In this document: positions 39,328 through 55,071 of the stretch, in pieces
Numbering within the stretch: the stretch's first letter is position 1
Layout of the letters: each line of letters begins with the position of its first letter
From: an uncultured Dysgonomonas sp.
Lineage (GTDB): Bacteria; Bacteroidota; Bacteroidia; Bacteroidales; Dysgonomonadaceae
NCBI RefSeq assembly: GCF_900079725.1
Contig: NZ_LT599032.1
Location: 4,584,054-4,648,053, forward strand
DNA length: 64,000 nucleotides
Reading direction: 5' to 3'
Position numbers and translations under genes: made by a program
The notes under the pieces: model-generated
What the model was told of the DNA's origin: nothing
Database searches by the model: none
Seen by the model: only the letters and a program-made list of their open reading frames with translations

Positions 39328-42300
39328 TTAGAATTTGATATTAACACCAAACAAATAGGTACGGGGACGAGGGTAATATCCCAGGTCGATACCCGACGAG
39401 AAACTGTCTACACCATATCCTATTTCCGGATCCATACCATCGTAATTGGTAAATGTGTAGAGGTTCTGTATTTGTCCGTAAAGTCTCAGGGAACTGATAT
39501 ATTTCGATTTTATCAGTTTGGCAAAATCATAGCCCAATGTAATATTGCTTATTCTAAGGAAGCTGCCATCATGTACATACAAGTCAGAGAAATTTGCCCA
39601 GTTTTTATTATCTTCTGTTACACGTGGCATCGAATTAGATGTGCCTTCCCCATGCCAGCGGTCGAATACAGATGTTGTATAGTTAGAGAAACGATTTGCT
39701 ATATTCCTGTATGATTGTACGATGTCATTTCCTGCCATGCCGCTTGCATTAAGCGCAAAATCGAAATTTTTATAGGCAAGATTAATGTTGAATCCGAATG
39801 TGAAATCAGGATTAGGATCTCCTACATTTCCTTTATCATTGGTATCGATAACGCCATCGCCGTTAACATCGACATACTTCACGTCACCCGGTTGAGCATC
39901 GGGTTGAAGTACTTTTCCATTCGATTTATAGTTTTGTACATCTGCTTCATTTTGGAAGATTCCGGCTGTTTTGTATCCCCAGAAGAATCCGATAGGCTCA
40001 CCATTTTGTGCACGATAGAATTCGGTAGCATTGTCGTAAAGCATATTTGTAAGACCATGAATAACTCCTCCTTCGGTCGGAATCTGGCCTACGGTATTTT
40101 TATTGTATGCACCGTTAGCACCGATTGTATATTCCAGTCCTCCGATATTATCGCTGAATGATACACCTAATTCCACACCTTTGTTGGTAACATCCCCTCC
40201 ATTTATATATTTAGAGCTTACACCTGCTGTTGCTAATACAGGAACACTGATGATCCAATCTTTGGTCTTTTTATTGTACCAGTCGAAGTTTACATTCATT
40301 TTCCCGTTAATAAAACGTGCGTCGAATCCGACATTGAATTGCTCCGATGTTTCCCAGCTCAAATCAGGATTGGAAAGGTTGTCAAGATTTGCTCCCGGAG
40401 TAAGTACGCCTTCAGTATTACCAAAAATATAGTTTACATTCTGCTGATTGATCAGAGCCAGATATTGGAATGCCGATACATTCTGGTTACCTACCTGTCC
40501 CCAACTCGCTCTTAGTTTGAAATAGTCCATCCAGTTTTTGGTTGGTTCCATGAATGATTCATTGCTCATAATCCATCCTGTGGATATAGAAGGGAAATAT
40601 CCGAAACGATTGCCGCTGGCAAAGTTCGATGAACCGTCGGCACGGAATGTGGCGTTTATTAGATAAGTTTCTTTATAGTTGTAGTTTAAGCGGCCAAAGT
40701 ATGAGAGTTTTTTGATGTCGGCATCTTTATTACCTCCAAGGCTCAACAGATTACTTAAAGTATTTGTTGCATTCGACAGATAAGCATGGTTCAGGCTGTT
40801 GAAAATCAGGTCTGCGTTACTACCGTTTAGCCATGTACCCGAATATTGGCTCATAGATGAACCTAACATGGCACCGAAATCATGGTCTTCATTCACTTTG
40901 AAGTTATAACTTAACAAGTTGTCCCAGTTGTATGTGCGGCCTTTACTCATAGACTGAAACGCTTCAGAATGGTCGTTGTATGCATATATAGACAGTTTAT
41001 AAATAGGCTTGTATGAATTATTTTCGGATGCAAAGTAGTCGATACCCAATGTTGTCCTGAATTTCAGATTCTTGATAGGCTCCAGTTCAAGATATACATC
41101 TCCTACGAGTTTCTGAGTATTACTCTTGTTCTGATTGTTATATACCATCTGTGCATAAGGATTGGCTTCACCGTTGTACCAGTCGGAATTACTGTTGTTC
41201 CAGAAATTTCCCTCTTCGTCATACATTGGTACAAACGGGCTGGTATTAAAGGCTGCTCTCAGTGTATTGTTGTATTGATTACCTACTTGTATACCATTCT
41301 TTTTACTGTATGAGAAAGTGAGATGTTGACCAAGTCTTACCTTATTGTCATACAGATTGTGTTCTGTATTGATGCGAAAGTTATATCGTTCATAGTTGGA
41401 CAAGTCTTTACCGCCGACTATACCTTCTTGTCCGGTATAAGACAGCGACATCGACCATACAGATGCGGCTGAGCCTCCTGATGCTCCAAGGGAATAGTTT
41501 TGAGTAATGGCATCATCTACCAGCATTTCATCCATCCAGTTGCTACCTGTTCCCATATTAGCGATTTCATCATTAGTAAAATATGCGCCTTTACCTGAGT
41601 TTATAGCAGCTTCATTCATAATTGTTGCATACTGTTGAGAGTTGAGCAGCTTTGCTTTTCTGGCAGCTTGCTGAACACCATAGTATGCATCGAAGGTGAT
41701 TTGCGCTTTAGCTCCCGTCTTACCGGTTTTGGTTGTAATCAGTACCACACCATTTGCAGCCTGCGAACCGTAAATAGCAGCCGAAGCAGCATCTTTAAGT
41801 ACATCTATAGACTCTATGTCGCTGTTGTTTAGATAAGTAATGTCGTTAGTCAATATTCCGTCAACAACAAATAGCGGTGATGCGTCCGCAACAGTTCCCA
41901 ATCCGCGGATGCGTACCTTCAGGCTCTCTCCGGGTTGCCCTGATGTAGAAGTGATCTGTACACCTGGGGTCTTTCCCTGTAAGGCTTGAAGTGCATTTGT
42001 CGTATTCATTTTTGCCAGTTCATCGCCTTTTACCTGTATGGTGGCTCCGGTGTTCAATTTCTTTTTCTGTACACCATAACCGATTGCTACGACTTCATTT
42101 AGTAAGTTGATTTCTTCTTCCAGTTCGATATTGAATACTGTTTCGGTACCAACTGTGACTGTTTTGGGTTTGAACCCGATGAAAGATATTTCAATCTTTG
42201 CGTTATCTTTAACGGTAAGGGAAAACTTACCATCCAAATCGGTCATTGTACCGTTTGTAGTCCCTACCTCGATTACCGAAGCCCCGGGAAGGGGTTCGCC

Positions 42301-42447
42301 AAGAGATGTGACCGTTCCGGTTATTTCATGCGCCGATTGAGCATAAATTCCGGTTACTGAGAATAAGCTGATAATTAGTATCAGGCATATTCTCTGCAAG
42401 TCAAGGAGACTTGCTTTTTTAGGTGAGGTTTTCATTCTAGGATTCAT
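39328..42447 (-). CDS. SusC/RagA-type TonB-dependent receptor (xyloglucan locus)
   Basis: 1039 aa outer-membrane importer; an ATG at 42435 is an alternative start. The signal region ends SVTGIYAQ. The CarboxypepD_reg-like domain (about 40-115, GASVIEVGTTNGTMTDLDGK), TonB box (NEVVAIGYGVQKK), plug (ALQGKTPGVQITSTSGQPGE, FVVDGILTND) and barrel ending FGVNIKF are complete. There is no STN domain, in line with control by the hybrid regulator next door. The start lies 55 bp after the GH31 stop, so GH31 - susC - susD - binding protein - GH5 - GH2 probably share a promoter in front of GH31. Confidence 0.97.
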   Translation of the reverse strand: MNPRMKTSPKKASLLDLQRICLILIISLFSVTGIYAQSAHEITGTVTSLGEPLPGASVIEVGTTNGTMTDLDGKFSLTVKDNAKIEISFIGFKPKTVTVGTETVFNIELEEEINLLNEVVAIGYGVQKKKLNTGATIQVKGDELAKMNTTNALQALQGKTPGVQITSTSGQPGESLKVRIRGLGTVADASPLFVVDGILTNDITYLNNSDIESIDVLKDAASAAIYGSQAANGVVLITTKTGKTGAKAQITFDAYYGVQQAARKAKLLNSQQYATIMNEAAINSGKGAYFTNDEIANMGTGSNWMDEMLVDDAITQNYSLGASGGSAASVWSMSLSYTGQEGIVGGKDLSNYERYNFRINTEHNLYDNKVRLGQHLTFSYSKKNGIQVGNQYNNTLRAAFNTSPFVPMYDEEGNFWNNSNSDWYNGEANPYAQMVYNNQNKSNTQKLVGDVYLELEPIKNLKFRTTLGIDYFASENNSYKPIYKLSIYAYNDHSEAFQSMSKGRTYNWDNLLSYNFKVNEDHDFGAMLGSSMSQYSGTWLNGSNADLIFNSLNHAYLSNATNTLSNLLSLGGNKDADIKKLSYFGRLNYNYKETYLINATFRADGSSNFASGNRFGYFPSISTGWIMSNESFMEPTKNWMDYFKLRASWGQVGNQNVSAFQYLALINQQNVNYIFGNTEGVLTPGANLDNLSNPDLSWETSEQFNVGFDARFINGKMNVNFDWYNKKTKDWIISVPVLATAGVSSKYINGGDVTNKGVELGVSFSDNIGGLEYTIGANGAYNKNTVGQIPTEGGVIHGLTNMLYDNATEFYRAQNGEPIGFFWGYKTAGIFQNEADVQNYKSNGKVLQPDAQPGDVKYVDVNGDGVIDTNDKGNVGDPNPDFTFGFNINLAYKNFDFALNASGMAGNDIVQSYRNIANRFSNYTTSVFDRWHGEGTSNSMPRVTEDNKNWANFSDLYVHDGSFLRISNITLGYDFAKLIKSKYISSLRLYGQIQNLYTFTNYDGMDPEIGYGVDSFSSGIDLGYYPRPRTYLFGVNIKF

Positions 42448-42502: not shown

Positions 42503-45337
42503 TTATTGTGCCATTTTTATCTCATTTGCTTTTCCTGTATATTTTATTTCCGAAACAGATGTTTTACCATCTTTAGTAATCCATTCTACACGGAACATCC
42601 GTTCCTTAGGCATGCCTTCATATTCGCCTTTTGCATCGCCTATAGAAAGTGTTTTGGCCGCTTCGTCATATGTGAATTTGATGGTCGAGTATGCGTCTTT
42701 TTCGTAGTTATAATTTACGCCTTCATCTTCATATAAGGTAAATTCTCCGTTTGCACCCGTATAAACTTTCAGGGTAAGATCTTTCTGTATTTCCTTCGTG
42801 GTTTGTATATCTTTACCCATAGGTAGAATAGTTCCTTCTTTTATATATAGAGGGATGCGTTCGTATGGAGCGGAAACATTCAGAGTTTGTCCTCCTGCTA
42901 TATACTTGTTTGATTCGAAGTCGTACCAATTAGTATTAGCTGGGAAGTATACATTACGCGATGTAGTTTTATAAGTATATACCGGGCATACCATTATATC
43001 GGGGCCAAACATATACTGATCGCTTATATTATGGGTTTTGATATCTTTGCCAAAGTCCATAACCAAAGCTCTCATAATTGTGTAGTCGTTGAAGTATGTC
43101 ATCCCAGCCAATGAATAGATGTATGGCATCATTTGGTAACGCAGTTTAGTATAGTAAACCATACTCTTGTATGCAGGATGGTTTTCCGGTGCGAGGTTGT
43201 ATATTTCGCGGGTAGGGAACTGTCCATGACTGCGGAATAATGGGCAGAATGCTCCGAACTGAAACCAGCGGGTATTCAGTTCCCTCCATTCTTTGAGGTC
43301 TTCAGAGCCTTCTTTAGCCTCTTCGTAACGTTTCTCAACACAGAATCCGCCTATATCCATCGTCCAGTACGGAATACCCGACATGGCAAAATTAAGTCCC
43401 GCAGATATCTGCGCCTTCATATCTTCCCAGCGTGTACCTATATCACCGCTCCATGTTGCCGTAGAATAGCGTTGTGTGCCTGCAAAGCCTGAGCGGGTAA
43501 GTAAGAATACACGATCGTTTGGTTTTACCGAGCGCTGACCGTCGTATATAGCCATGGCATTTGCCAATGCGTATGCATTAAAATATTCAGTAGATGAACC
43601 CAATGCTGTAGGTGTCATCAGATCTTTTCGGTATTGCATGCTTGCATTGGATAGAATATCCGGTTCGGAAGCATCCATCCACCAGGCATCTATACCTTTC
43701 GAATATAGTTTTTCATTCATCTGATCCCAGAACATTTTGCGTGCCCCTTCGCTGTATGCATCATAGAATCCGGCAATATAACCTGTGCCTATCCAGTCGC
43801 GGATACTATCTTTCACAGCGCGATTGAACATCCATCCTTTTTCGTCGAAAGCTTTATAATTGTCTGTAGTATAATAGAATTTAGGCCACACTGATATCAT
43901 AATGCGGGCATCCATAGCGTGTACACTGTCTATCATGCCTTTAGGGTCAGGAAAACGTGCCGGATCAAAATCGTGGCTTCCCCATGCATCCTGTGGCCAA
44001 TAAGACCAGTCCAGTACAATATTATCCAGTGGTATATTTCTTTTGCGGTATTCGTTTACGGCAGTCAGTAATTCATCAGCAGTCTTATAACGTTCACGGC
44101 TTTGCCAATAACCCATAGCCCATTTAGGCATTACCTGCGACTTGCCTGTGATGGTACGGTATCCTTTTATAACATCGTCTGCATCGTTTCCGCGGATGAA
44201 ATAATAGTCTATCTGATCCCCCATTTCCGACCATAGAGACAATTTGTTCTGTTCTTCTTCCGTTCTAGGACTTAATGCTTTCAGTCCTATATATGATATA
44301 CCGCCATCAGGTTTCCAGTCCAGCTTCAATTTACGTTTTTCACCTGCTTTCATATCCACTGTGAATTTGTAACTATTGGGATTCCATGCTGTACGCCATC
44401 TTTCGGGTACGAGTACTTCTTCGTCCATATATATAGTAGTGTAACCTGCATAATAGAGTATGAAATGGTATTTACCTGTTTCTTTGGCTTCAATTTCGCC
44501 TTCCCATGTGATACGGGAATTATAGAAAGGAAAGTCTTGAGGGAATTTCTTTATTGTTTCCAGATTTTCATAATCAATCTGTGACTCGCTTCTTTCTGTA
44601 AATATTTGTCTTGTATCCCCGTTTACCATATATGTGGCAGTGAGTCCGCCTTCTTTACCGGTTTTATCATATAATTTAAACTGGTCTAAATCTGCATAGT
44701 CGCGCGGGTCGCCAAACTTTGTAAGAGAGTAATTGTCCCATAGTATGCCGTAATTTTTGCTTGATAAAACAAAAGGTACCGATACCTTTGTATTGTATTG
44801 GAAAAGAACTTCATTCTTTCCCTTATAATTGTATTCATCAGCCTGATGTTGTCCTAGTCCGTAGAAAGCTTCATCGGCCGGCGATTCGAATACCTGCTGC
44901 ATGGTATAGGCTTTTTTGCCTTCTACCTCGATATCAGAGAAAGTTTTACCTCCACCTTTATTCTCGGTAAGGATTAGGTTGCCATTTATATCGGAAAATG
45001 ATACTTCACCTGTAGCCAGCGATACGGATGCAATAGTAGTAGCGGTTTTTAGAATAACATTTCCATCTTGTTCCGAAACATCCCAACCTTCAGTTTTTGT
45101 TTTATCATATATTGTAACAAGGCTCTTATTCTCCGGGAAATTGTTAGCCGGTGTCGCCGATACACGAATGATATCGTCGTTGATAATTTGTAACCTGACA
45201 TGTTTTGTAGAGTTAGCGTCTTCCGTCTTTAATGTTACTATTACCCCATCGTTTGTTTTCTTGTAAGGTCCGCTCTGGCAGTTAGTAAGTAATAATACTG
45301 ACAAAAGGCTCGCAAGTACGAGTTGAATTTTTCTCAT
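42503..45337 (-). CDS. GH31 alpha-xylosidase with PA14 insert
   Basis: 944 aa exported protein (MRKIQLVLASLLSVLLLTNC, lipobox LLTNC). The GH31 N-terminal beta domain is interrupted by a PA14 domain at about 215-350 (TWEGEIEAKETGKYHFILYY, TIYMDEEVLVPERWR), as in the alpha-xylosidases of xyloglucan loci. The catalytic barrel has nucleophile Asp555 (WWMDASEPDI) and acid/base Asp632 (TWSGDIGTRWEDM). A DUF5110-type domain is at the C-terminus. It removes alpha-xylose from the non-reducing end of xyloglucan oligosaccharides in the periplasm. It is the first gene of the minus operon, divergent from the regulator, with a promoter box at 45370-45377. Confidence 0.94.
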   Translation of the reverse strand: MRKIQLVLASLLSVLLLTNCQSGPYKKTNDGVIVTLKTEDANSTKHVRLQIINDDIIRVSATPANNFPENKSLVTIYDKTKTEGWDVSEQDGNVILKTATTIASVSLATGEVSFSDINGNLILTENKGGGKTFSDIEVEGKKAYTMQQVFESPADEAFYGLGQHQADEYNYKGKNEVLFQYNTKVSVPFVLSSKNYGILWDNYSLTKFGDPRDYADLDQFKLYDKTGKEGGLTATYMVNGDTRQIFTERSESQIDYENLETIKKFPQDFPFYNSRITWEGEIEAKETGKYHFILYYAGYTTIYMDEEVLVPERWRTAWNPNSYKFTVDMKAGEKRKLKLDWKPDGGISYIGLKALSPRTEEEQNKLSLWSEMGDQIDYYFIRGNDADDVIKGYRTITGKSQVMPKWAMGYWQSRERYKTADELLTAVNEYRKRNIPLDNIVLDWSYWPQDAWGSHDFDPARFPDPKGMIDSVHAMDARIMISVWPKFYYTTDNYKAFDEKGWMFNRAVKDSIRDWIGTGYIAGFYDAYSEGARKMFWDQMNEKLYSKGIDAWWMDASEPDILSNASMQYRKDLMTPTALGSSTEYFNAYALANAMAIYDGQRSVKPNDRVFLLTRSGFAGTQRYSTATWSGDIGTRWEDMKAQISAGLNFAMSGIPYWTMDIGGFCVEKRYEEAKEGSEDLKEWRELNTRWFQFGAFCPLFRSHGQFPTREIYNLAPENHPAYKSMVYYTKLRYQMMPYIYSLAGMTYFNDYTIMRALVMDFGKDIKTHNISDQYMFGPDIMVCPVYTYKTTSRNVYFPANTNWYDFESNKYIAGGQTLNVSAPYERIPLYIKEGTILPMGKDIQTTKEIQKDLTLKVYTGANGEFTLYEDEGVNYNYEKDAYSTIKFTYDEAAKTLSIGDAKGEYEGMPKERMFRVEWITKDGKTSVSEIKYTGKANEIKMAQ

Positions 45338-45369: not shown

Positions 45370-45377
45370 CAAAATTA
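45370..45377 (-). promoter_or_regulatory. GH31 operon promoter, -7 box
   Basis: On the minus strand TAATTTTG (45377-45370) fits TAnnTTTG, 32 bp before the GH31 ATG at 45337. No -33 TTTG is present, as expected for an activator-dependent promoter. A candidate HTCS operator lies 63 bp upstream, the same distance as at GH95. Confidence 0.55.
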
Positions 45378-45440
45378 GATTAAGTGCTTAAAACGGCTTT
45401 TCTTAAATGTTCTTAAAGGAAGTGTCTAAAAAAATATGTA

Positions 45441-45475
45441 GGGGGTTAAATGTTTCCAAAATGGTATTTAAATGG
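45441..45475 (-). promoter_or_regulatory. Candidate HTCS operator upstream of GH31
   Basis: On the minus strand ACATTTAACCCCC (45453-45441) follows CCATTTAAATACC (45475-45463) by exactly 22 bp; the two match at 9 of 13 positions. A third CATTT lies between them, giving an 11-bp period. The sequence matches ACATTTnnCCCCC found twice, also 22 bp apart, upstream of GH95. Direct repeats on one helix face suit AraC-type DNA binding by the hybrid regulator encoded alongside. Confidence 0.6.
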
Positions 45476-45495
45476 TAACACAGTACGCTGTGTCA
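45476..45495. promoter_or_regulatory. Palindrome in front of the HTCS gene
   Basis: TAACACAG-TACG-CTGTGTCA is a 20-bp inverted repeat with one mismatched pair. It begins beside the GH31 operator and ends 12 bp before the HTCS -7 box candidate TAAGTTTG (45508-45515). A dimeric repressor or a global regulator binding here would cover the -33 region of the HTCS promoter. The protein is unknown. Confidence 0.5.
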
Positions 45496-45507
45496 TATAA
45501 TTTTATG

Positions 45508-45515
45508 TAAGTTTG
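45508..45515 (+). promoter_or_regulatory. HTCS gene promoter, -7 box candidate
   Basis: TAAGTTTG fits TAnnTTTG and lies 32 bp before the ATG at 45548. No TTTG is found at the -33 distance; the palindrome at 45476-45495 occupies that place. Confidence 0.4.
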
Positions 45516-45547
45516 TAAGAGAAGAACCTACCTGATCTTAATTACTT

Positions 45548-48500
45548 ATGAAGAAATCTATATTATTATCTATACTTATTTATTTTATATCTATATATAG
45601 TATCCTCGCTCAGCAATTCGAGTTTTCTCACCTTAATAATACAAATGGCTTATCTAATAACCAAGCCGAATCTCTATTCAGAGATAGTCGCGGATTCATG
45701 TGGTTTGGTACCAATATGGGACTGAATAGGTATGATGGTGTAAATTTTAAAGTTTATACAAATATAAAAAACGACCCCAATAGCCCCTTGTATGATAGGA
45801 TTATAGATATACAGGAAGATATCGATGGCAATCTGTGGCTTAAAGAAAGCAGCTATATTGTTTACAATTGGAAAACAGAATCGTTTATCAATAATGTTGA
45901 TTCTTTATTAGGTAAGATGGGGTTAGAGGCGGGACCTTCTATAATAGAACTGGATGATAAGAAAGATTTTTATATCGCTTATCCTGATAAAGGAATATTC
46001 AAATATGATATTGCTACGCATCAGGTGACGGCTTTTCCTCAATCATCAGATGTTAATGCTCTGGATCAGTCTCGAATAGCAGACATTAAGATTAAAGGAA
46101 ATTTCATCTGGGTATTACACGCTAATGGGCTTGTAGAACGACTGAACATACAAACGGGTAAAGTGGATATCCGGAATACATTCTTCAAAGAGAATTATCA
46201 GAATTCTACGATACTGAAATCCATTTATATAGATTCTGACAACGATCTGTGGATATATCCCAGTATAGACGACAGAGGTGTGGCCTATTTCAGCCCGAAA
46301 GAAAATCAATGGACACTACTTGATACTAAAAGTAAAGTTGCCCTGTCGAGCAGTTTTATAAGATGTGTAGGACAGGATGCCGGCGGTTCTATATGGATAG
46401 GTACTGATCATGGCGGGGTTAATATTTATGATAAGAAGAAAAAAGAAATAACAGTAGTAAAGAATGATATATACAATAACAACTCCATTAGCCAGAATTC
46501 GATAATAAGCATTTTTTGCGAGGCGGATGGTACTGTCTGGGTGGGGACATACAAGAACGGGATATCATACTATCACCCTAACTTGTTTAAATTCAAGAAA
46601 TCACCTTTATTCTATACATTTAATAAGAATGCCGAAACCTTCGATTGCAACAGTTTGTATAAGAATAAAAATGGGGATTTGTGGATAGGGACAAATGGCC
46701 GGGGACTTGTTAAATATAATGATGCTACAGGAAGTATACAAACCTTCCGCTATAATCCCAATGATGCCGGCAGCATATCGTCTGATATAATTACTTCGGT
46801 ATTCGAAGATCATGCTCAGATTCTTTGGATAGGTACATTCTTAGGTGGGTTGAATGCATATAACGGTAGAGAATTTAAGAGATATCAGGTAGATGAAGAT
46901 AATCCAAATTCATTATCAAGCAAGAGTGTATTTGGTTTGGCCGAAGATGATGAGAATAATCTGTGGATAGCGACTTTAGGTGGTGGAACTGACAAATTGG
47001 ACGTTAATCGACGTACTTTCACACATCATAATTTAAGTAACAGTAAAATGCTTTCGGACTATGTTTTGTCCATGTTTGCAGACCCGGTGAAAAATATTTA
47101 TCTAGGTACCGACAGGGGGCTTAATTTTATAGACAAAGATAAGAAAGAGATTACTGCATACTTTTCTCAAAACAAGCTTTTGGATTCCCTGACTAATATA
47201 ACAATCAATTATCAATTTGTCGATTCAAAAGGATTGGTTTGGATAGCTACCGATAAAGGTATAAATATTTATGATCCTCACAGGCATCAATTTTATTATA
47301 TAATGGCGAGTAATGGTTTGCCAAGTGATGAGGTGGTATCGCTTATAGAGGATAATGACGGGAATGTATGGGCTGGTACACGTAATGGATTGGCTTGTAT
47401 CTATTGTAATTTTTCGGATCAGATACTTAATTATACAATTACTTATTTTGATGTAAAAGACGGCTTGCCAAGTTCTGTTTGTAATCGTAATGCTATATTC
47501 AAGGACAAAGACGGTACCATATATATAGGAAGTACAAATGGTTATGTTGCTTTTAACCCCCGAGAAATCGTTTTTAACAAGAATGTTCCTAAAGCCCGCT
47601 TTACGGATTTGCTGATTACCAATCAGGTGATAAAACCCAACGTGAAATATGACGGACGTGTTATTATTGAAAAATCTATCATAGATATTAATGAGATAAC
47701 CCTGCATCACGGAGAAACGAATTTTACAATCCTGTTTTCAGCGCTTAATTTTATTCATCCCGAAAAAAATAAATATAAATACATGCTTGAGGGGCTTGAT
47801 AATAAGTGGACGGAAATAACAAACGGTATAGGAGCTGCCTCATATTCCAACCTGAATGCAGGTACTTATAAACTTATAGTATATGCGAGCAACGATGATA
47901 ATGTATGGTCTGCAGAACCTATTGTATTGAAGATAGAGGTACAGCCTCCCTTTTGGCTATCGTGGTGGGCGTATATCATTTACATTATTGTGGCTGCGGC
48001 TATAATTCGTTTTTTCCTTAAATATAAGCTCAATAAGCAAAGGGAAGAGTACGAGCAGGCACAGAAGATTCTCGAAGCCAATAAAATACATGAAGTGGAT
48101 GAACTGAAATTTAAATTCTTCACCAATATAAGCCATGAGTTTAAAACCCCGTTGACACTCATTCTCACCCCACTGGAGAAACTAATGAAATCTCCTGCAT
48201 CGGATGAGCAAAAAGCGACGATGAATATTATGCACAAAAATGCACAGAACTTATTGCAAATGGTGAATGAGATTCTCGATTTCAGAAAGTTCGACCTGAA
48301 TAAAATGAACCTCAATATATCGCGTGGCAATATTATTGAATTCACAAAAGATATTTGCCAGTCTTTTTCTTCCCTTGCTGCAGAGAAGTCTATAAAATTG
48401 ACTTTCACAACTTATTTGCAGGAGTTACAGATGGAGTTTGACAAAGAAAAGATGAATAAGATAATTACGAACCTCATATCCAATGCTTTTAAATATACAG

Positions 48501-49663
48501 AAGAAGGACATATAGATGTCAGTATAGGTGTATCAGAATTGATGCAGAGTAATGAAACCTCTGCTACAAAACAATTGACAATCAGGGTGTCAGATACAGG
48601 GGTTGGGATGGAACCAGAATATCTTGATAGAATATTTGACCGTTTTTTCAGAATTGAAAAAGCCGATAAGAATACCCCGTCTGGAACAGGTGTCGGTTTG
48701 CATCTGGTGAGTGAATATGTGAAATTGCATGGAGGAGAAATAGAAGTGGAAAGTACAGTGGATAAAGGCTCTGTTTTTATAATCCTGTTACCTATCAATA
48801 ATTCTACTTATAAAGAACTGAGTAGTCAGGATGTTATACATTCAGGCGATCCCGGAGAAGCGGAAAGAGGTAAGAATGAAACGAAATCTGTTCAGAGGGC
48901 AAATTTACCATTATTACTGATTGTAGATGATAATGAAGATTTTTGTGAGTTTATAACTGGTTTGTTCATTGATAACTACAATATAGTTACTGCCAATGAT
49001 GGAGAAGAAGGCCTACGTATCGTCCTCGACCAGCTACCTGATATTATACTCTGCGATGTAATGATGCCAAAAATGGATGGTTACGAATTTTGCAGGCAGG
49101 TAAAGGGGGATATACGCACATCCCATATTCCGATTATATTGCTTACAGCCAAGTCGTCGGAAGAGAATCGCTATTCGGGTATAGAAGCCGGAGCTGACGA
49201 TTATATAGCCAAGCCTTTCAATATAGATATGCTGACTCTGAAAATAGCTAAGATAATAGAGAAACAAAAGAAGCAACAAAGCAGCTTCAAGAAAAAAAAC
49301 GATGTAGCACCGAGCGATATCGAGATAACCTCTATGGATGAGAAATTCGTACAAAAGGCGATAGCTATAGTGGAACAGAATATAGGTAATGCCGATTTTC
49401 TGGTTGAAGATCTGTGTAAGGAGATGGGGATGAGCCGTGTATATTTCTATAAAAAGACTCTTGCTCTGACGGACAAAACTCCATCTGAATTTATTCGTTT
49501 TATCCGTTTGAAACGAGCGGCTGATTTGCTCGAAAAGAGTCAGATGTTTGTAAACGAGATTGCATTTCAGGTGGGATTTAATGATCCGAAGTATTTCCGT
49601 AAATATTTTAAGGAAGAATTCGGGGTAACACCTAATGAGTATAAGAAGAATGAATCCAAGTGA
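45548..49663 (+). CDS. Hybrid two-component system regulator (HTCS) of the xyloglucan locus
   Basis: 1371 aa sensor-regulator in one chain. A signal peptide (to about SILAQ) is followed by a periplasmic sensor of about fourteen Reg_prop repeats (about 25-730; DLWIGTNGRGLVKYN, VWAGTRNGLACIY) and a Y_Y_Y domain (about 731-796). The membrane helix is at about 801-823 (FWLSWWAYIIYIIVAAAIIRF). HisKA has His863 (NISHEFKTPLTL). HATPase_c has an N-box near 976 (NLISNAFKYTEEG) and G-boxes (SDTGVGMEPEY, GTGVGLHLVSEYV). A receiver has Asp1170 (ILCDVMMPKMDGYEF). An AraC-type HTH lies at about 1270-1367. All key residues are present. It would sense xyloglucan oligosaccharide in the periplasm and activate the flanking operons. 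Confidence 0.97.
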   Translation: MKKSILLSILIYFISIYSILAQQFEFSHLNNTNGLSNNQAESLFRDSRGFMWFGTNMGLNRYDGVNFKVYTNIKNDPNSPLYDRIIDIQEDIDGNLWLKESSYIVYNWKTESFINNVDSLLGKMGLEAGPSIIELDDKKDFYIAYPDKGIFKYDIATHQVTAFPQSSDVNALDQSRIADIKIKGNFIWVLHANGLVERLNIQTGKVDIRNTFFKENYQNSTILKSIYIDSDNDLWIYPSIDDRGVAYFSPKENQWTLLDTKSKVALSSSFIRCVGQDAGGSIWIGTDHGGVNIYDKKKKEITVVKNDIYNNNSISQNSIISIFCEADGTVWVGTYKNGISYYHPNLFKFKKSPLFYTFNKNAETFDCNSLYKNKNGDLWIGTNGRGLVKYNDATGSIQTFRYNPNDAGSISSDIITSVFEDHAQILWIGTFLGGLNAYNGREFKRYQVDEDNPNSLSSKSVFGLAEDDENNLWIATLGGGTDKLDVNRRTFTHHNLSNSKMLSDYVLSMFADPVKNIYLGTDRGLNFIDKDKKEITAYFSQNKLLDSLTNITINYQFVDSKGLVWIATDKGINIYDPHRHQFYYIMASNGLPSDEVVSLIEDNDGNVWAGTRNGLACIYCNFSDQILNYTITYFDVKDGLPSSVCNRNAIFKDKDGTIYIGSTNGYVAFNPREIVFNKNVPKARFTDLLITNQVIKPNVKYDGRVIIEKSIIDINEITLHHGETNFTILFSALNFIHPEKNKYKYMLEGLDNKWTEITNGIGAASYSNLNAGTYKLIVYASNDDNVWSAEPIVLKIEVQPPFWLSWWAYIIYIIVAAAIIRFFLKYKLNKQREEYEQAQKILEANKIHEVDELKFKFFTNISHEFKTPLTLILTPLEKLMKSPASDEQKATMNIMHKNAQNLLQMVNEILDFRKFDLNKMNLNISRGNIIEFTKDICQSFSSLAAEKSIKLTFTTYLQELQMEFDKEKMNKIITNLISNAFKYTEEGHIDVSIGVSELMQSNETSATKQLTIRVSDTGVGMEPEYLDRIFDRFFRIEKADKNTPSGTGVGLHLVSEYVKLHGGEIEVESTVDKGSVFIILLPINNSTYKELSSQDVIHSGDPGEAERGKNETKSVQRANLPLLLIVDDNEDFCEFITGLFIDNYNIVTANDGEEGLRIVLDQLPDIILCDVMMPKMDGYEFCRQVKGDIRTSHIPIILLTAKSSEENRYSGIEAGADDYIAKPFNIDMLTLKIAKIIEKQKKQQSSFKKKNDVAPSDIEITSMDEKFVQKAIAIVEQNIGNADFLVEDLCKEMGMSRVYFYKKTLALTDKTPSEFIRFIRLKRAADLLEKSQMFVNEIAFQVGFNDPKYFRKYFKEEFGVTPNEYKKNESK

Positions 49664-49680
49664 TTTAAATAACCTTGTAA

Positions 49681-49715
49681 ACATTTCACCCCCTTTTAGG
49701 AGACATTTTGCCCCC
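49681..49715 (+). promoter_or_regulatory. HTCS operator upstream of GH95: two direct repeats
   Basis: ACATTTCACCCCC (49681-49693) and ACATTTTGCCCCC (49703-49715) match at 11 of 13 positions, and both are followed by TT. Their start-to-start distance is 22 bp, two helical turns. The downstream copy ends 64 bp before the -7 box at 49780. The same motif and spacing occur upstream of GH31 (45441-45475). I infer that the AraC-type domain of the adjacent regulator binds here. Confidence 0.7.
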
Positions 49716-49779
49716 TTCGGGGAATGAAGGTATTCCTACAATAGAAACATTGGGAATGGGATAAAATGCAATAAAGCAA

Positions 49780-49787
49780 TAAATTTG
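49780..49787 (+). promoter_or_regulatory. GH95 promoter, -7 box
   Basis: TAAATTTG fits TAnnTTTG, 24 bp before the ATG at 49812. No -33 TTTG is present, which suits an activator-dependent promoter. Confidence 0.55.
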
Positions 49788-49811: not shown

Positions 49812-52172
49812 ATGAAAAAAGTATTATTGGCTTTAGTCTGTATTTTCTGTTCCTGCATCACTCTTCTTTCGCAAAATAAATGGCAATATTATTTTAACGA
49901 GCCGGCTTCTGCATGGGAGGAGTCTATTCCGTTGGGTAATGGGCGTATAGGGATGATGCCTTGGGGAGGAGTAGACAAGGAACGTATCGTATTGAACGAA
50001 ATATCCCTTTGGTCTGGAAATAAACAGGATGCCGATAATCCGGATGCCTATAGACATCTTGGCGAAATAAGAAAGCTCCTTTTCGAAAAGAAAAACCGTG
50101 AGGCGCAGGAGTTAATGTACAAAACCTTTACATGTAAAGGTGAAGGAGGGAGTGGCGCGGGTTATGGTAAATATGAAAATTTTGGGAATCTCTACATAGA
50201 TCTTACTTATCCAGATGCATCTGCAACAGTTTTTGATTACAGACGGACGTTGGATATGAATAATGCCTTATCGGATGTTACTTATACAAAAGGGGGGATT
50301 AAATATACTAGGGAATATTTTACCTCTTTTATAGATGATATAGGAATAGCCAGATATAGTGCCGACAAATCGAAGGCTCTGAATATGCGTATCTCTCTCG
50401 GCCGTGACGAAAATTATGAAACATATGCCAGTGGTCCGGTTCTTTACATATTTGGTCAATTGTCAGCAGGCGAAGGCAAAGAGGGTATGAAATATCTGGG
50501 AATGGTAAAAGTAGAGCATAAGGGAGGAAAACTCTTTACCAATGCCAGGGATATAGAAATTAAAAATGCCGATGAGGTAACTCTTTCCATTTCTCTGGCA
50601 ACCAACTACAATGGAGTAGAACGTGAAAAACTTGCAGCTAATCTATTAAATAAATTAAAAGGTAACTATAAAACCCGGAAACAAAAACACATCGAAAAAT
50701 ATCAAAACCTGTTTAAACGAGTAGACTTTACATTAAGTAAAAATAAAAATTCAGACCTGCCTATAAACAGAAGATTGGAAGCTTTTGTAAATGATCGCAC
50801 CGATTACGATTTAGCAGCCTTGTATATGCAATACGGACGCTATCTGCTTATCTCATCTACACGTGAAGGCGGATTGCCTCCGAACCTGCAAGGACTATGG
50901 GCACCACAAATACATACACCCTGGAATGGAGACTACCATTTGAATATAAATCTGCAAATGAATCTTTGGCCTGCTGAAGTTTGTAATCTCTCCGAATTAC
51001 ATCTACCCACTATCGAATATGTAAAATCATTAACAGAACTCGGGCATAAAACTGCAAAAATATATTATAACAGCGATGGTTGGGTAACTCATATACTAGG
51101 TAATGTGTGGGGCTTCACTTCTCCGGGCGAGAGTCCGTCCTGGGGGGCGACCAATACTTCGGGGGCCTGGATGTGCCAGCATTTGTGGGAGCATTACCTC
51201 TATTCGCAGGATGTGGAATATCTGAAATCCGTATATCCTACAATGAAAGGTGCTGCTCTATTTTTCGAAAATATGTTGGTCGAAGACCCGAATAACGGCT
51301 ATTTGGTAACCGCTCCGACCACTTCTCCCGAAAACTCTTATATAACTGAATCCGGCGATATACTGAGCGTTTGCGCAGGTTCTACAATGGATAATCAGAT
51401 TGTGCGTGAACTGTTTACGAATGTATCCCAAGCCGCAAAGATACTGAATACGGATGCACAATGGATAGAATCCATAGAAACAAAAAAACAAAGGCTCGCG
51501 CCTACCACTATTGGCAAATACGGGCAGATAATGGAGTGGCTCGAAGATTATGAAGAAGCTGAGATACATCACCGCCATGTATCGCAACTCTATGGCTTGC
51601 ATCCCGGTTATGAACTTACATACGAAAAAACACCTGAATTGATGGAAGCTGCAAAGACGACGCTCGAACGCCGTGGCGACGAATCTACGGGCTGGTCTAT
51701 GGCATGGAAGATAAATTTTTGGGCGCGGCTCAAAGATGGAGATCGAACTTATAAGCTGATTGGTGATCTGCTGAAACCCGCAGGTAAAGGGCATGGTACA
51801 TATCCAAACCTTTTCAGTGCACATCCGCCAATGCAGATAGATGGCAATTTTGGAGGTTGTGCGGGTATAGCCGAGATGCTGGTACAGAGCCATGCCGGAT
51901 ATATTGAGCTGTTGCCTTCCGTTCCTGACGGTTGGAAAGACGGTAGTGTGAAAGGCTTGAAAGTAAGGGGTGGGGGAGAAGTATCTTTTGCATGGAAAGA
52001 TGGAAAAGTTATTAATGTTGATTTCGTTGCCCGGGCTGCAAATACATTTGCTTTTAAACTTGCAGACGATAAGATGGATGTATCAGGGACAAAAGACTAT
52101 AAAACAGAGAACGGTAAATTAATTCTTCATCTGAAAAAAGGGGAAATAGTCAGAATATCGAAATTACCATAA
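49812..52172 (+). CDS. GH95 alpha-L-fucosidase-type hydrolase
   Basis: 786 aa exported protein (signal to about ITLLSQ). The N-terminal beta domain begins WEESIPLGNGRIGMMPWGGV. The (alpha/alpha)6 catalytic domain (about 300-700) contains WNGDYHLNINLQMNLWPAEV with the two asparagines that orient the catalytic water in GH95. It also has TAPTTSPENSY, with the likely general acid Glu, and MQIDGNFGGCAGIAEML, with the conserved Asp. GH95 enzymes invert and release alpha-1,2-fucose from galactose, or alpha-L-galactose. In a xyloglucan locus this implies fucogalactoxyloglucan side chains. It has its own promoter and operator after the regulator gene. Confidence 0.93.
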   Translation: MKKVLLALVCIFCSCITLLSQNKWQYYFNEPASAWEESIPLGNGRIGMMPWGGVDKERIVLNEISLWSGNKQDADNPDAYRHLGEIRKLLFEKKNREAQELMYKTFTCKGEGGSGAGYGKYENFGNLYIDLTYPDASATVFDYRRTLDMNNALSDVTYTKGGIKYTREYFTSFIDDIGIARYSADKSKALNMRISLGRDENYETYASGPVLYIFGQLSAGEGKEGMKYLGMVKVEHKGGKLFTNARDIEIKNADEVTLSISLATNYNGVEREKLAANLLNKLKGNYKTRKQKHIEKYQNLFKRVDFTLSKNKNSDLPINRRLEAFVNDRTDYDLAALYMQYGRYLLISSTREGGLPPNLQGLWAPQIHTPWNGDYHLNINLQMNLWPAEVCNLSELHLPTIEYVKSLTELGHKTAKIYYNSDGWVTHILGNVWGFTSPGESPSWGATNTSGAWMCQHLWEHYLYSQDVEYLKSVYPTMKGAALFFENMLVEDPNNGYLVTAPTTSPENSYITESGDILSVCAGSTMDNQIVRELFTNVSQAAKILNTDAQWIESIETKKQRLAPTTIGKYGQIMEWLEDYEEAEIHHRHVSQLYGLHPGYELTYEKTPELMEAAKTTLERRGDESTGWSMAWKINFWARLKDGDRTYKLIGDLLKPAGKGHGTYPNLFSAHPPMQIDGNFGGCAGIAEMLVQSHAGYIELLPSVPDGWKDGSVKGLKVRGGGEVSFAWKDGKVINVDFVARAANTFAFKLADDKMDVSGTKDYKTENGKLILHLKKGEIVRISKLP

Positions 52173-52866
52173 TAAATGGGAATCAACAGCTGAAAGGATT
52201 GTGACTTTTCTATATAATTTTATCTATACATGGCAGATAACAAGCGTGTTATCGGGGCTAAAAGTTGCAAAAAGAAAAACTAAGGAAAGGTGTTACTTTT
52301 GTTACCTTTTTAACAGTTACAAGTAAACAAGATACCAGATACAAGTTGCTGACTGATGGCTGTTCATTGCTAACTGGTATATGTGTAACCTTTGTTACCT
52401 TTTCAAAGTAGTAAGTATTGAGTAATAAGTATAAAGGAGTTCTAATTGTTGACTGTTTACTGCTAACTGTTTACTGAAAAAGGTGTTCTTTGTGTAACTC
52501 TTTGTGTTCCTTGTGGTAAAGAGATTTAACCACTAAGTACACGAAGGAAATCACAAAAGGTATAAAGGCTAAAAAACTGTTACATGTGTTACTTTTTGCA
52601 TTTTATACAGGATAGTTACCCGTATAGCAGCTAGCCGGAAGACACAAGGACATACCTAACAAGAACGGAAAAGGTAACAGGTAGAAAAGATTGTAAAATG
52701 TGTAACTTTTACATACGCTGCGCTCCTGTGACTGTTGGTTGTAACTTTGTGGAAAAGCTACAACTAAATGAGGTATTACTGTTGACCGTTATCTATTGAC
52801 TAAAAACTGTTTTAATCATTAACTGGCATAATTAAAAAACATAATTAATAAAAATTATAAGATAAC
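52173..52866. other. Repeat-rich gap inside the xyloglucan locus
   Basis: About 700 bp without a gene, separating GH95 from GH3. It contains the dispersed repeat copy B (52289-52404). There are also many loose GTAAC/GTTAC motifs (near 52591, 52673, 52700) and short direct repeats such as CTGTTTACTG twice near 52450-52480. No intact open frame or terminator stands out. The GH3 promoter probably lies in the AT-rich 60 bp before 52867, but no TAnnTTTG box was found. Confidence 0.6.
52289..52404 (+). repeat. Dispersed intergenic repeat, copy B
   Basis: Begins GGTGTTACTTTTGTTACC and ends GTGTAACCTTTGTTACC. Its reverse complement matches 7671-7808 block by block (ACACATATACCAGTTA, AGCAACTTGTAT, GGTAACAAAAG). 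The two copies are in opposite orientation and bracket 44 kb that holds PUL1 and most of the xyloglucan locus. Both copies are bounded by GTAAC-rich inverted ends. Confidence 0.7.
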
Positions 52867-55071
52867 ATGAAAAAAACATTTATTTGCGGCTTGCTCAGCC
52901 TTTTCTTAATGAATAATGTGCAGGCACAAACAAACACTACTCCGGTTTATCTGGATGATAGTAAACCTATAGAGACCCGAATAGAGGATGCCTTATCGCG
53001 CATGACTCTTGAAGAAAAAGTGGCTTTCATCCATGCACAGTCTAAGTTCAGTACACCCGGAGTTCCCCGTCTGGGCATTCCCGAATTGTGGATGAGCGAC
53101 GGCCCTCATGGTGTACGTATGGAAATAGATTGGGATACATGGGCACATGCCGGATGGACAAACGATTCGTGCACGGCTTTCCCTGCACTGACATGCCTTG
53201 CCGCAACTTTCAATCCGGAATTGTCATCATTATATGGGAATGCTATAGGCGAAGAAGCCCGCTACAGAAAAAAAGATATATTATTGGGCCCGGGGGTAAA
53301 TATTTACCGCACACCGATGAACGGACGCAACTTCGAATACTTGGGTGAAGATCCCTATCTGGCATCTAAAATGGTCGTACCCTATATTAAAGGTGTACAG
53401 CAGAATGGAGTGTCGGCATGTCTGAAACATTTTGCGCTGAATAATCAGGAAGTATGGCGTAATGTAATTGATGTAGAAGTAAGTGACAGGGCATTATACG
53501 AAATTTATTTACCTGCATTTAAAGCCGGAGTTCAGGAAGGTGGGGTATGGTCTGTAATGGGCTCGTACAACAAATTCAGAGGACAGTATTGTAGTCACCA
53601 CGAGATATTAGTTAATAAGATATTAAAAGGTGAGTGGGGCTATGATGGCATTGTCGTAACAGACTGGGGTAGTGCCCATGATACAAAAGAAGCCGCTCTT
53701 TACGGACTGGACGTGGAAATGGGAACATGGACAAATGGCTTGACTTGGGGCGAGAGCTTCGCATACGATAATTACTATCTGGCTCAGCCTTATCTGAAAA
53801 TGTTGAAAAGCGGAGAATTGCCGATGTCTACTCTCGATGATAAAGTGCGCCGTGTGCTTCGCCTGACATTCCGTACTAATATGGACAGGGAACGACCATT
53901 CGGAAGCTTTGCTACAAAGGAACACGCCGAAGTAAGCCGTAAAGTAGCCGAAGAAGGCATTGTTTTGATGAAAAACACCAATAACTTTTTCCCTATTGCA
54001 AAAGGCAGATATAATAAAATTGTGGTGATTGGCGAAAACGCTACACGTTCGCTTACCGTGGGAGGTGGTTCGTCGGAACTGAAAGTGAAAAAAGAAGTTT
54101 CGCCACTCGAAGGGTTGATAAATAAATATGGTGCAGATAAAGTATTCTATACAATGGGCTACGGTTCCGGCCCAACGGTATATGATAATTTTGTACCGTC
54201 ACCATATAATGTCGATTCATTGAAGCGTGAGGCTCTGGCATTAGTTAAGGATGCTGATGTCGTTCTTTTCTTCGGCGGGCTGAACAAAAATTATCAGCAG
54301 GATTGTGAAGGGGCCGACCGCATCACTTATGATCTTCCTTTCGGACAAAATGAATTGATAGAAGACTTGCTGAAAGTGAATAAGAATACGGGGGTAGTTA
54401 TTGTTAGCGGTAATGCCGTGGCAATGCCATGGTTGGATAAAGTACCCGCATTGATGCAGTCTTGGTATCTTGGTTCTGAAGCGGGTAATGCGACAGCGAA
54501 TATAATAGCAGGTGACATAAATCCGTCGGGTAAACTACCTTTCAGTATTCCTAGAAAACTGGAAGACAACGGAGCGATGTCATTCGGTACTATTTCTTAT
54601 CCGGGCGACAGTATCACACAGATATATAAAGAAGATATACTAGTAGGTTATCGCTGGCACGATACAAAGAAGATACCGGCATTGTTTCCGTTCGGATACG
54701 GCTTGTCATATACTACATTCGAATATGGGAAAGTATCCGCCGACAAGAAAGAATATGGGAAAGATGATGTTATAAAAGTTATTTTTACGCTTTCCAATAA
54801 AGGAAATGTAGCCGGTGCGGAATCTGTACAGATATATGCATCGCAGGCAAAACCATCACTGGAACGTCCCGCTAAAGAACTGAAAGCATTCAAAAAAGTA
54901 TTTCTTAATGCAGGTGAAAGTAAAACTGTAGAACTATCTGTACCTGTGAAAGATCTGGCTTTCTTCGATGATAAAGCTCACAACTGGGTAGTAGAGTCGG
55001 ATAAATTTACACTGCATTGTGCGGCATCGTCTGCCGATGTGAAAAGTTCAGTAACTGTTCAGATTAAATAA
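52867..55071 (+). CDS. GH3 beta-glucosidase-type hydrolase
   Basis: 734 aa exported protein (signal to about NNVQAQ). The (alpha/beta) barrel domain spans about 25-340 (RIEDALSRMTLEEKVAFIHA, GVPRLGIPELWMSDGPHGVR, CLKHFALNNQEVWRN). Nucleophile Asp266 lies in GIVVTDWGSAHDT. The (alpha/beta)6 sandwich spans about 360-590 (VVVIGENATRSLTVGGGSSE). A fibronectin III-like C-terminal domain follows (about 640-734, TLSNKGNVAGAESVQIY). In xyloglucan loci GH3 enzymes release backbone glucose from deprotected oligosaccharides; a beta-xylosidase role is also possible. It is separated from GH95 by a repeat-rich gap, so it is its own transcription unit or the first of two genes with GH43. Confidence 0.94.
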   Translation: MKKTFICGLLSLFLMNNVQAQTNTTPVYLDDSKPIETRIEDALSRMTLEEKVAFIHAQSKFSTPGVPRLGIPELWMSDGPHGVRMEIDWDTWAHAGWTNDSCTAFPALTCLAATFNPELSSLYGNAIGEEARYRKKDILLGPGVNIYRTPMNGRNFEYLGEDPYLASKMVVPYIKGVQQNGVSACLKHFALNNQEVWRNVIDVEVSDRALYEIYLPAFKAGVQEGGVWSVMGSYNKFRGQYCSHHEILVNKILKGEWGYDGIVVTDWGSAHDTKEAALYGLDVEMGTWTNGLTWGESFAYDNYYLAQPYLKMLKSGELPMSTLDDKVRRVLRLTFRTNMDRERPFGSFATKEHAEVSRKVAEEGIVLMKNTNNFFPIAKGRYNKIVVIGENATRSLTVGGGSSELKVKKEVSPLEGLINKYGADKVFYTMGYGSGPTVYDNFVPSPYNVDSLKREALALVKDADVVLFFGGLNKNYQQDCEGADRITYDLPFGQNELIEDLLKVNKNTGVVIVSGNAVAMPWLDKVPALMQSWYLGSEAGNATANIIAGDINPSGKLPFSIPRKLEDNGAMSFGTISYPGDSITQIYKEDILVGYRWHDTKKIPALFPFGYGLSYTTFEYGKVSADKKEYGKDDVIKVIFTLSNKGNVAGAESVQIYASQAKPSLERPAKELKAFKKVFLNAGESKTVELSVPVKDLAFFDDKAHNWVVESDKFTLHCAASSADVKSSVTVQIK

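What the first reader, a model, noticed from the sequence alone, without database searches (positions are those of the whole stretch)
45370..49787. Two matching HTCS operators with the same geometry define the xyloglucan regulon
ACATTTCACCCCC and ACATTTTGCCCCC lie 22 bp apart upstream of GH95. On the other strand CCATTTAAATACC and ACATTTAACCCCC lie 22 bp apart upstream of GH31. The downstream repeat ends 64 bp before the TAnnTTTG box at GH95 and 63 bp before it at GH31. Sequence, period and distance agree although the sites are 4.2 kb apart and inverted. Direct repeats two turns apart suit a dimer of AraC-type domains such as that of the HTCS between them. I found no copy before GH3, GH43, GH2 or PUL1.
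Basis: partly seen in the sequence, partly recalled or inferred. Interest (0 to 1): 0.85.

Follow-up and report, generated by a model that had tools for sequence, protein, structure and literature searches.

The report
Phased HTCS operators of xyloglucan genes
A sugar-sensing regulator of a plant-fibre-eating bacterium very probably switches on both halves of its xyloglucan gene cluster through matching DNA landing pads, which belong to a longer array set at fixed distances from the promoter and kept with nearly the same layout in related clusters.

Summary
Two direct-repeat pairs (22-bp period) lie 64 and 63 bp before TAnnTTTG boxes at GH95 and GH31, the only exact matches in the 5.22-Mb genome. 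Within the genus the motif goes with the regulator. An array is kept at 24 of 27 orthologous divergent promoters examined, own included, and a second pair after the HTCS at 15 of 23 loci. The PUL is of xyloglucan type. Direct repeats about 21 bp apart are the published HTCS operator form, so the kind is known.

Anchored on the -7 box, half-sites occupy a grid: A -101, B -79, C -58, D -36. D's ACA core stands at -33 in 24 of 24. In Paludibacter-type loci the array is two A-B sites 43 bp apart. Second-arm pairs sit in one of the two registers in 13 of 14 cases (8 distal, 5 proximal). Other HTCS promoters show pair excess at the same registers, clear for the proximal, marginal for the distal. Slot A keeps helical spacing to the HTCS promoter. 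No binding data exist.

The parts
45463..45478 (-). Slot A, GH31 promoter (16-mer TTACCATTTAAATACC, -101 from the -7 box); faces the divergent HTCS promoter
   Evidence: conserved in orthologs
45441..45456 (-). Slot B, GH31 promoter (GAAACATTTAACCCCC, -79)
   Evidence: conserved
45420..45435 (-). Slot C, GH31 promoter (-58); not recognisable in this genome, a clear GTTATCA half-site in Paludibacter-type relatives
45398..45413 (-).
   Evidence: ACA at -33 in 24 of 24 divergent promoters; lag 43 from B is the best lag
45370..45377 (-). -7 box TAATTTTG of the GH31 operon
45508..45515 (+). -7 box TAAGTTTG of the HTCS gene, 30 bp from slot A
   Evidence: 29-31 or 39-41 bp in 20 of 23 loci
49678..49693 (+). 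Slot A, GH95 promoter (TAAACATTTCACCCCC, -102)
49700..49715 (+). Slot B, GH95 promoter (GAGACATTTTGCCCCC, -80)
49744..49759 (+). Slot D, GH95 promoter (GAAACATTGGGAATGG, -36; 44 bp after B); weak, lacks the C run
49780..49787 (+). -7 box TAAATTTG of the GH95 arm
45548..49663 (+). HTCS regulator: Reg_prop, Y_Y_Y, HisKA, HATPase_c, Response_reg, HTH_18/HTH_AraC (1371 aa)
42503..45337 (-). GH31, matches BoGH31A alpha-xylosidase
   Evidence: 5jou, E=0
39328..42447 (-). SusC-like transporter, second gene of the GH31 arm
37672..39315 (-). SusD-like protein
34244..35716 (-). GH5 with BACON domain, best PDB match 3zmr
31607..34108 (-). GH2, last gene of the GH31 arm
49812..52172 (+). GH95, first gene of the second arm
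52867..55071 (+). GH3
55205..56812 (+). GH43, matches BoGH43A

Best explanation
The repeats are the operators of the HTCS encoded between them. Xyloglucan oligosaccharides sensed in the periplasm activate the HTCS (inferred from the family). Its AraC-type domains bind same-face direct repeats two helical turns apart, upstream of the first gene of each arm (GH31 to GH2; GH95 to GH43). The full operator is longer than the reported pair. Half-sites sit on a grid fixed to the -7 box (A -101, B -79, C -58, D -36), which reads as two tandem dimer sites 43 bp apart: a distal A-B pair and a proximal C-D pair whose D half abuts the -35 region, where an AraC-type activator could touch RNA polymerase. 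In this genome A, B and D are kept and C is not recognisable. Slot A also lies at a helically spaced distance from the divergent HTCS promoter, so autoregulation is likely. Shown: sequence, spacing, conservation, uniqueness, co-occurrence. Inferred: binding, dimerisation, polymerase contact, inducer.
For: Uniqueness: 2 exact matches in 5.22 Mb. Genus: 12 matches in 25 genomes, 11 at the HTCS locus, 2 reversed-control matches; 9 of 10 genomes with the ortholog, 1 of 15 without. Conservation: 24 of 27 divergent promoters. Grid: in 20 of these, a profile from slot B of other clusters ranks -101, -36 and -58 as 2nd, 3rd and 7th of 102 offsets, the rest of the top 7 being B, its neighbours and a neighbour of A. 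D: ACA at -33 in 24 of 24, and in 7 of 9 second-arm promoters; background 0.024-0.029; 5 of 180 control boxes. Lag 43 is the best lag for C and D in 9 Paludibacter-type promoters and for D in 10 Dysgonomonas-type ones. Second arm: of 14 loci with a pair scoring 12 or more and a box in range, the second half-site starts 78-81 bp (8) or exactly 36 bp (5) before the box, one at 58. Other HTCS loci: lags 21-22 stand out in 137 boxes (0 of 500 shuffles) and not in 180 control boxes; strong pairs peak at anchors -79 and -37/-36 with little excess at -58. In L072 a gene is inserted after the HTCS and the second pair stays with GH3. Precedent: BT0366 shifts DNA of both arms of its PUL and is suggested to activate itself (PMC5061871 passages).
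Against: No binding, footprint or expression data for this HTCS. Orthologous promoters are related, so counts are not independent events; their boxes were chosen by the best slot-B score 70-85 bp upstream (D was not used). Slot C is unrecognisable in this genome and D lacks the C run; over the 20 promoters B carries more information than D. L037, L065 and L073 have no clear array. No second-arm pair scored 12 or more in 8 of 23 loci (one of them, G001, has a weaker pair seen; L079 has only 657 bases held); G011's has no box in range. Second-arm D is one base off in L062 and absent in L094; lag 43 is not best in L067 and L034. In other HTCSs the distal register is marginal against controls (18 of 211 vs 7 of 180, p=0.07), both registers together are little more frequent than chance (4 promoters, 2.0 expected) and B-D likeness is mostly at background. 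In the replicate sets the largest excesses were off the grid (anchor -20 in R2; -32 and -61 in R1). Domain similarity and operator similarity do not correlate over 94 loci (Spearman -0.17, p=0.10). A Segatella copri xyloglucan HTCS gene was not upregulated (PMC11784079 passages), against general autoregulation.
Confidence: 0.82

Rival explanations
1. Only the A-B pair is the HTCS operator; D (and C) belong to the core promoter or to nothing, and their resemblance is coincidence plus shared ancestry.
For: D lacks the CCCC half in Dysgonomonas and C is not recognisable there. Orthologous promoters are related, so one chance resemblance could be inherited by all. In other HTCSs the two registers are used together little more than chance (4 against 2.0).
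Against: ACA at -33 is not a feature of 180 control TAnnTTTG boxes (5, mean 3.4 per offset) and recurs in second-arm promoters (7 of 9). In Paludibacter-type promoters A and C also resemble each other at lag 43. Five second-arm pairs (G002, G020, G007, L074, L075) have their second half-site exactly 36 bp before the box, as does a weaker one in G001/L063, and the moved GH31 promoter of L066 has the pair at C-D only. Other HTCSs have pairs at C-D.
Confidence: 0.14
2. D is half of a site for the Crp-like regulator BT4338 (consensus wwwTATGTTnTAnAACATAwww as quoted in PMC11501099).
For: The right half resembles D (4.76 of 6 matches on average over 33 promoters).
Against: The left half is near background (1.94 against 1.66 of 6) although the motif is a palindrome; D sits on the HTCS grid and repeats B.
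Confidence: 0.05
3. Another DNA-binding protein, not the neighbouring HTCS, reads the repeats.
For: Nothing in sequence proves which protein binds.
Against: Among the 20 of 41 listed window ORFs that were scanned, the only other regulator is a ROK protein at 6103-7314. Presence goes with the HTCS ortholog in 25 genomes. Direct repeats about 21 bp apart are the published HTCS form (PMC3878776 passages).
Confidence: 0.06
4. Chance or mechanical conservation (recent common ancestry, leader RNA).
For: Some relatives are close (G006, HTCS 95% identical).
Against: Conserved islands stand out from diverged flanks among orthologs whose HTCS is 52-76% identical; spacing is fixed while flanks vary.
Confidence: 0.01

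Closest known systems
HTCS operators predicted in Bacteroides (Ravcheev et al. 2013, PMC3878776; passages read)
   Same: Direct repeat of two conserved sites, mean spacing 21 bp, upstream of PUL operons; dimer on one face, two turns apart.
   Different: The passages read describe two sites per motif; 'transcription start' and 'xyloglucan' do not occur in the main text. Here a grid of up to four slots, two dimer sites 43 bp apart, fixed to the -7 box.
BT0366 arabinan HTCS of B. thetaiotaomicron (PMC5061871 passages; PMC3404733 section 9)
   Same: One HTCS binds DNA of both arms of its PUL, including the region shared with its own gene, and is suggested to activate itself.
   Different: Other substrate and half-site; shown by EMSA and ChIP, which are lacking here.
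Bacteroides ovatus xyloglucan PUL (from PDB molecule names and recall; Larsbrink 2014 not read)
   Same: Best solved matches of GH31, GH5 and GH43 are BoGH31A, 3zmr and BoGH43A.
   Different: GH95 heads the second arm here; SusD is only distantly related (BACOVA_02651, E=2e-13); the B. ovatus operator was not examined.
HTCS response-regulator fragments BT4124 and BT4663 (PMC11253607; passages read)
   Same: AraC-type domain binding to PUL promoters with predicted sites.
   Different: Operator architecture is not described in the passages read.

Membership tests
HTCS regulator (Bacteroidota) | Reg_prop/Y_Y_Y sensor, HisKA, HATPase_c, receiver and AraC-type HTH in one chain | tested here: met
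   these domains above the Pfam cut-offs
HTCS operator | Direct repeat of two conserved sites about 21 bp apart | tested here: met
   22 bp at both sites; 21-22 bp in orthologs
HTCS operator | Upstream of PUL operons linked to the HTCS, conserved in orthologous loci | tested here: met
   24 of 27 divergent promoters; 15 of 23 second arms; 9 of 10 against 1 of 15 genomes
HTCS operator | Two half-sites per promoter (as in the published description) | tested here: not met
   Further half-sites at -58 and/or -36 on the divergent side; some second-arm promoters have two only
HTCS operator | Bound by the cognate HTCS | not testable with these tools
   No binding data
Xyloglucan PUL | GH31 alpha-xylosidase, GH5 endo-xyloglucanase, SusC/SusD, side-chain GHs | tested here: met
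   (by similarity)
Xyloglucan PUL | Induced by xyloglucan | not testable with these tools
   No expression data
Crp-like BT4338 site (for D) | Palindromic TATGTTnTAnAACATA | tested here: not met
   Left half near background

The most novel reading that the evidence does not exclude
HTCS promoters across Bacteroidota share one frame: dimer sites occupy two fixed registers from TAnnTTTG, proximal (-58/-36) and distal (-101/-79), four helical turns apart. Half-site sequence differs by regulator; xyloglucan divergent promoters use both, and second-arm promoters switch between them. Operators of any HTCS could then be read off by position, and divergent HTCS genes are phased to the same array for autoregulation.
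Probability: 0.5. Interest if true: 0.62.

Novelty: new variant of a known kind. Interest (0 to 1): 0.46.

Why it matters
HTCSs control much of polysaccharide use by gut Bacteroidota, and many have no predicted operator (20 of 36 in B. thetaiotaomicron in PMC3878776, passages). A positional rule tied to the -7 box would let operators and regulons be predicted from single promoters, and would suggest how a membrane-bound AraC-type protein meets RNA polymerase. For xyloglucan the half-site and its two target operons are now specific enough for direct tests.

Tried and rejected
A genus pattern one base off in its spacing matched nothing, not even this genome; corrected, and one search is not evidence. 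Domain similarity against operator similarity over 94 other HTCS loci: no correlation (Spearman -0.17). After the fact, the 5 highest grid scores (L045, L042, L046, L044, L051) lie among the 10 loci with the most similar domains; four of them sit beside GH31, GH5 or GH3 relatives and may be distant xyloglucan loci. Replicate HTCS sets from a phylum-wide draw (R1, 34 boxes) and three other Dysgonomonas (R2, 40 boxes): anchor -79 gives 4 against 1.2, -36 gives 6 against 1.2, -58 gives 2 against 0.9 (sums), but their own largest excesses lie off the grid (-20 in R2; -32 and -61 in R1). Some pairs are low-complexity (L207) or one palindrome read twice (L156). HTCS loci of up to 24 kb were used, so some boxes are not next to the HTCS gene. 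The Crp reading of D and a core-promoter origin of D were rejected.

Loci dropped or set aside: L065, L073 and L037 have no clear array. L089 (partial HTCS) was not examined. G020, a near-copy of G002, has the site but is not among the 27. L012, L035 and L067 were left out of the profile (one-base shifts or variant box); L035 was re-anchored on TATCTTTA 11 bp upstream of its first box. 'Divergent promoter' is the GH31 side in most loci; in L069 the neighbour is GH5, and in L036 the neighbour was not identified. 'Paludibacter-type' means nine non-Dysgonomonas loci, five of them named Paludibacter. The 9 second-arm promoters are those where a pair had been noticed; the fuller scan is, whose threshold of 12 was set after seeing the scores. 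The second-arm gene of L074 is unidentified and its called start precedes the box.

Literature: the listings (part of the hits in 15, 64, 65) show no paper on a xyloglucan HTCS operator or a four-site HTCS operator, as judged from titles, abstracts and some passages; the library holds open-licence PMC papers only and supplements were not available.
Full report
OBSERVATION. The paired pattern is far above chance in the window (2 against 0.04 expected with 3 mismatches), and exact matches in the 5.22-Mb single-contig genome are these two only. With 3 mismatches a looser form gives 4 matches in the genome and the reversed control 5, so only close matches mean anything. Single half-sites are no more frequent than chance. 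No comparable pair lies before GH3, GH43, GH2 or PUL1.

WHAT THE LOCUS IS. Pfam gives a complete HTCS between GH31-SusC-SusD-unassigned-GH5-GH2 on one strand and GH95-GH3-GH43 on the other. The best solved relatives are BoGH31A (5jou, E=0), 3zmr for GH5 and BoGH43A, so this is a xyloglucan-type PUL.

ORTHOLOGOUS LOCI. HTCS relatives came from 25 genomes of the genus, 392 of the order and a named collection. Of 27 loci (own included) with an HTCS at least about 47% identical and upstream DNA examined, 24 carry the array at the divergent promoter, one of them (L066, where GH31 has moved) at C-D only; L037, L065 and L073 do not. The genus-wide pattern, written from these sites and therefore not blind, gives 12 matches in 25 genomes, 11 at the HTCS locus, with 2 reversed-control matches. 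Genomes with the ortholog: 9 of 10. Without: 1 of 15, a 3-mismatch match (Fisher p=5e-5, descriptive only). The tenth, G008, has a diverged copy. Half-sites and box are islands of conservation in diverged flanks. The HTH domain is 80-100% identical in 22 sequences (own included) whose whole proteins are 52-100% identical.

SECOND ARM. Scanning up to 12 kb after the HTCS, a pair scoring 12 or more was found in 15 of 23 loci. In 14 of these a box lies in range, and the second half-site starts 78-81 bp before it in 8 (G000, G006, G008, L034, L067, L071, L072, L076), exactly 36 bp in 5 (G002, G020, G007, L074, L075) and 58 bp in one (L094). The first two values are the distal and proximal registers of the divergent promoters, so the dimer site seems to have changed register between relatives. 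G020 and G002 are near copies, as are L072 and L076, and G000 and G006. G011 has no box in range. Scores below 12: G001 (a weaker pair at C-D seen), G018, L066, L069, L073, L078, L079 (657 bases held) and L083. Paludibacter-type second arms start with GH3 instead of GH95 (L072, L076, L094). In L072 a rhamnogalacturonan lyase gene (RGL11) on the other strand lies between HTCS and GH3, and the operator stays beside GH3.

REARRANGED LOCUS. In L066 (a MAG named Azobacteroides) GH31, SusC, SusD and HTCS run in one direction. The GH31 promoter has the pair at C-D only; the HTCS promoter has at most a weak D (best offset -36, negative score).

THE ARRAY IS LONGER THAN REPORTED. A profile made from slot B alone, leaving out related clusters, was run over all offsets of 20 divergent promoters. 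ACA stands at exactly -33 in 24 of 24 divergent promoters; the corresponding ACA of B is at -76 in 21 of 24 (B is one base off in L012 and L067, absent in L066). B carries more information overall. Of 9 second-arm promoters, 7 have ACA at -33; L062 is one base off and L094 has none; background is 0.024-0.029. Within single sequences lag 43 is the best lag for D in 10 Dysgonomonas-type promoters (9.3 of 16, mean over lags 4.6), in 9 Paludibacter-type ones (9.1, mean 4.6) and, tied with lag 65, in the Olivibacter-named contig (10, mean 4.7). It is the best lag for C in Paludibacter-type loci (10.0, mean 4.8) but not in Dysgonomonas. For four second-arm promoters tested, the best lag for D is 44 at GH95 here and 42 in L072, and neither in L067 and L034. 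So the fullest form reads as two A-B dimer sites 43 bp apart.

NOT A GENERAL PROMOTER FEATURE. Of 180 intergenic TAnnTTTG boxes in 400 kb of this genome, 5 have ACA at -33, mean 3.4 per offset. A Crp-like (BT4338) site is unlikely: its left half is near background.

OTHER HTCS PROMOTERS. 137 boxes from 54 loci of other HTCSs show excess self-similarity at lags 21 and 22 (0 of 500 block shuffles reach it; 5.3 sd above other lags). So do the 40 boxes of this genome's paralogs taken alone (0 of 500). The 180 controls do not (303 of 500). Strong pairs (at least 10 of 16) peak at anchors -79 (12 against 1.2 at other lags) and -37/-36 (15 and 14 against about 3), with 3 against 2.0 at -58. Pooled with replicates (211 boxes): 23 proximal pairs against 5 of 180 controls (p=0.003), 18 distal against 7 of 180 (p=0.07); both together in 4, 2.0 expected; B-D likeness is mostly at background. 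The replicates alone are small and have their largest excesses off the grid. So the proximal register is fairly well supported as general, the distal weakly, and joint use of both is shown only for xyloglucan-type loci. Domain similarity does not predict operator similarity over 94 loci.

PHASING TO THE REGULATOR'S PROMOTER. On the HTCS strand a TAnnTTTG box lies 29-31 bp (10 loci) or 39-41 bp (10 loci, counting L035 after correcting its anchor by 11) from slot A, in 20 of 23; L063, L069 and L075 have none in range. One helical turn separates the classes, which largely follow clades, so this may be one or two events. It suggests autoregulation, as proposed for BT0366 (PMC5061871 passages); a Segatella copri xyloglucan HTCS gene was not upregulated (PMC11784079 passages).

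MECHANISM AND PRECEDENT. Shown: sites, grid, uniqueness, conservation, co-occurrence. Inferred: HTCS dimers bind A-B and C-D on one face, D beside the -35 region contacts RNA polymerase, A-B helps from four turns upstream. Precedents: direct repeats averaging 21 bp for 16 HTCSs (PMC3878776 passages), binding of intact HTCS at its PUL (PMC3404733 section 9), EMSA of BT0366 at both arms (PMC5061871 passages), EMSA of BT4124 and BT4663 fragments (PMC11253607 passages). The -7 box consensus TAnnTTTG is recalled.

VERDICT. New here are the xyloglucan half-site, the array fixed to the -7 box, and two registers that recur in second arms and, at least the proximal one, in other HTCSs. No listing shows these in print. 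After checking, the odds of the general rule were raised from 0.45 to 0.5 because; other odds changed by no more than 0.01.

Noticed in passing
L069 (NZ_LR027852.1, named Olivibacter jilunii): A 62% identical HTCS with the same array, beside a GH5 relative, in a record named for another class: gene transfer or a misnamed assembly.
   Followed up: no
window 52173-52866: A 694-bp gap between GH95 and GH3 with no listed ORF over 48 aa and repeated GTTACTTTT-like words; in D. hofstadii the two matches lie about 22 bp apart. GH3 has no operator of its own here.
   Followed up: partly
L072:14180-16354: A rhamnogalacturonan lyase (RGL11) gene lies inside a xyloglucan-type PUL between HTCS and GH3; an unidentified 724-aa ORF on the same strand lies after the HTCS in L074.
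   Followed up: partly
L066 / L141: PUL rearranged so that GH31, SusC, SusD and HTCS run in one direction; the GH31 promoter keeps only the proximal pair.
   Followed up: yes
L012 and L036: HTCS genes with one internal stop each (TAG, TAA) as read by the search; sequencing error or decay.
   Followed up: no
window 35804-37615: 603-aa protein between SusD and GH5 with no Pfam match, in the place of a surface glycan-binding protein; 97% identical in G006, but no match (35% identity or more, E 1e-30) in the 7 other long Dysgonomonas loci.
   Followed up: no
window 6103-31511: Separate locus with ROK, DUF4434, SusC-like, GH20 and DUF5009 genes; no xyloglucan operator in the parts scored.
   Followed up: partly
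L151, L148, L153, L158, L160 (HTCS paralogs of this genome): Direct-repeat pairs at about -58/-36 from a TAnnTTTG box, mostly with half-sites unlike the xyloglucan one: candidate operators of other HTCSs.
   Followed up: partly
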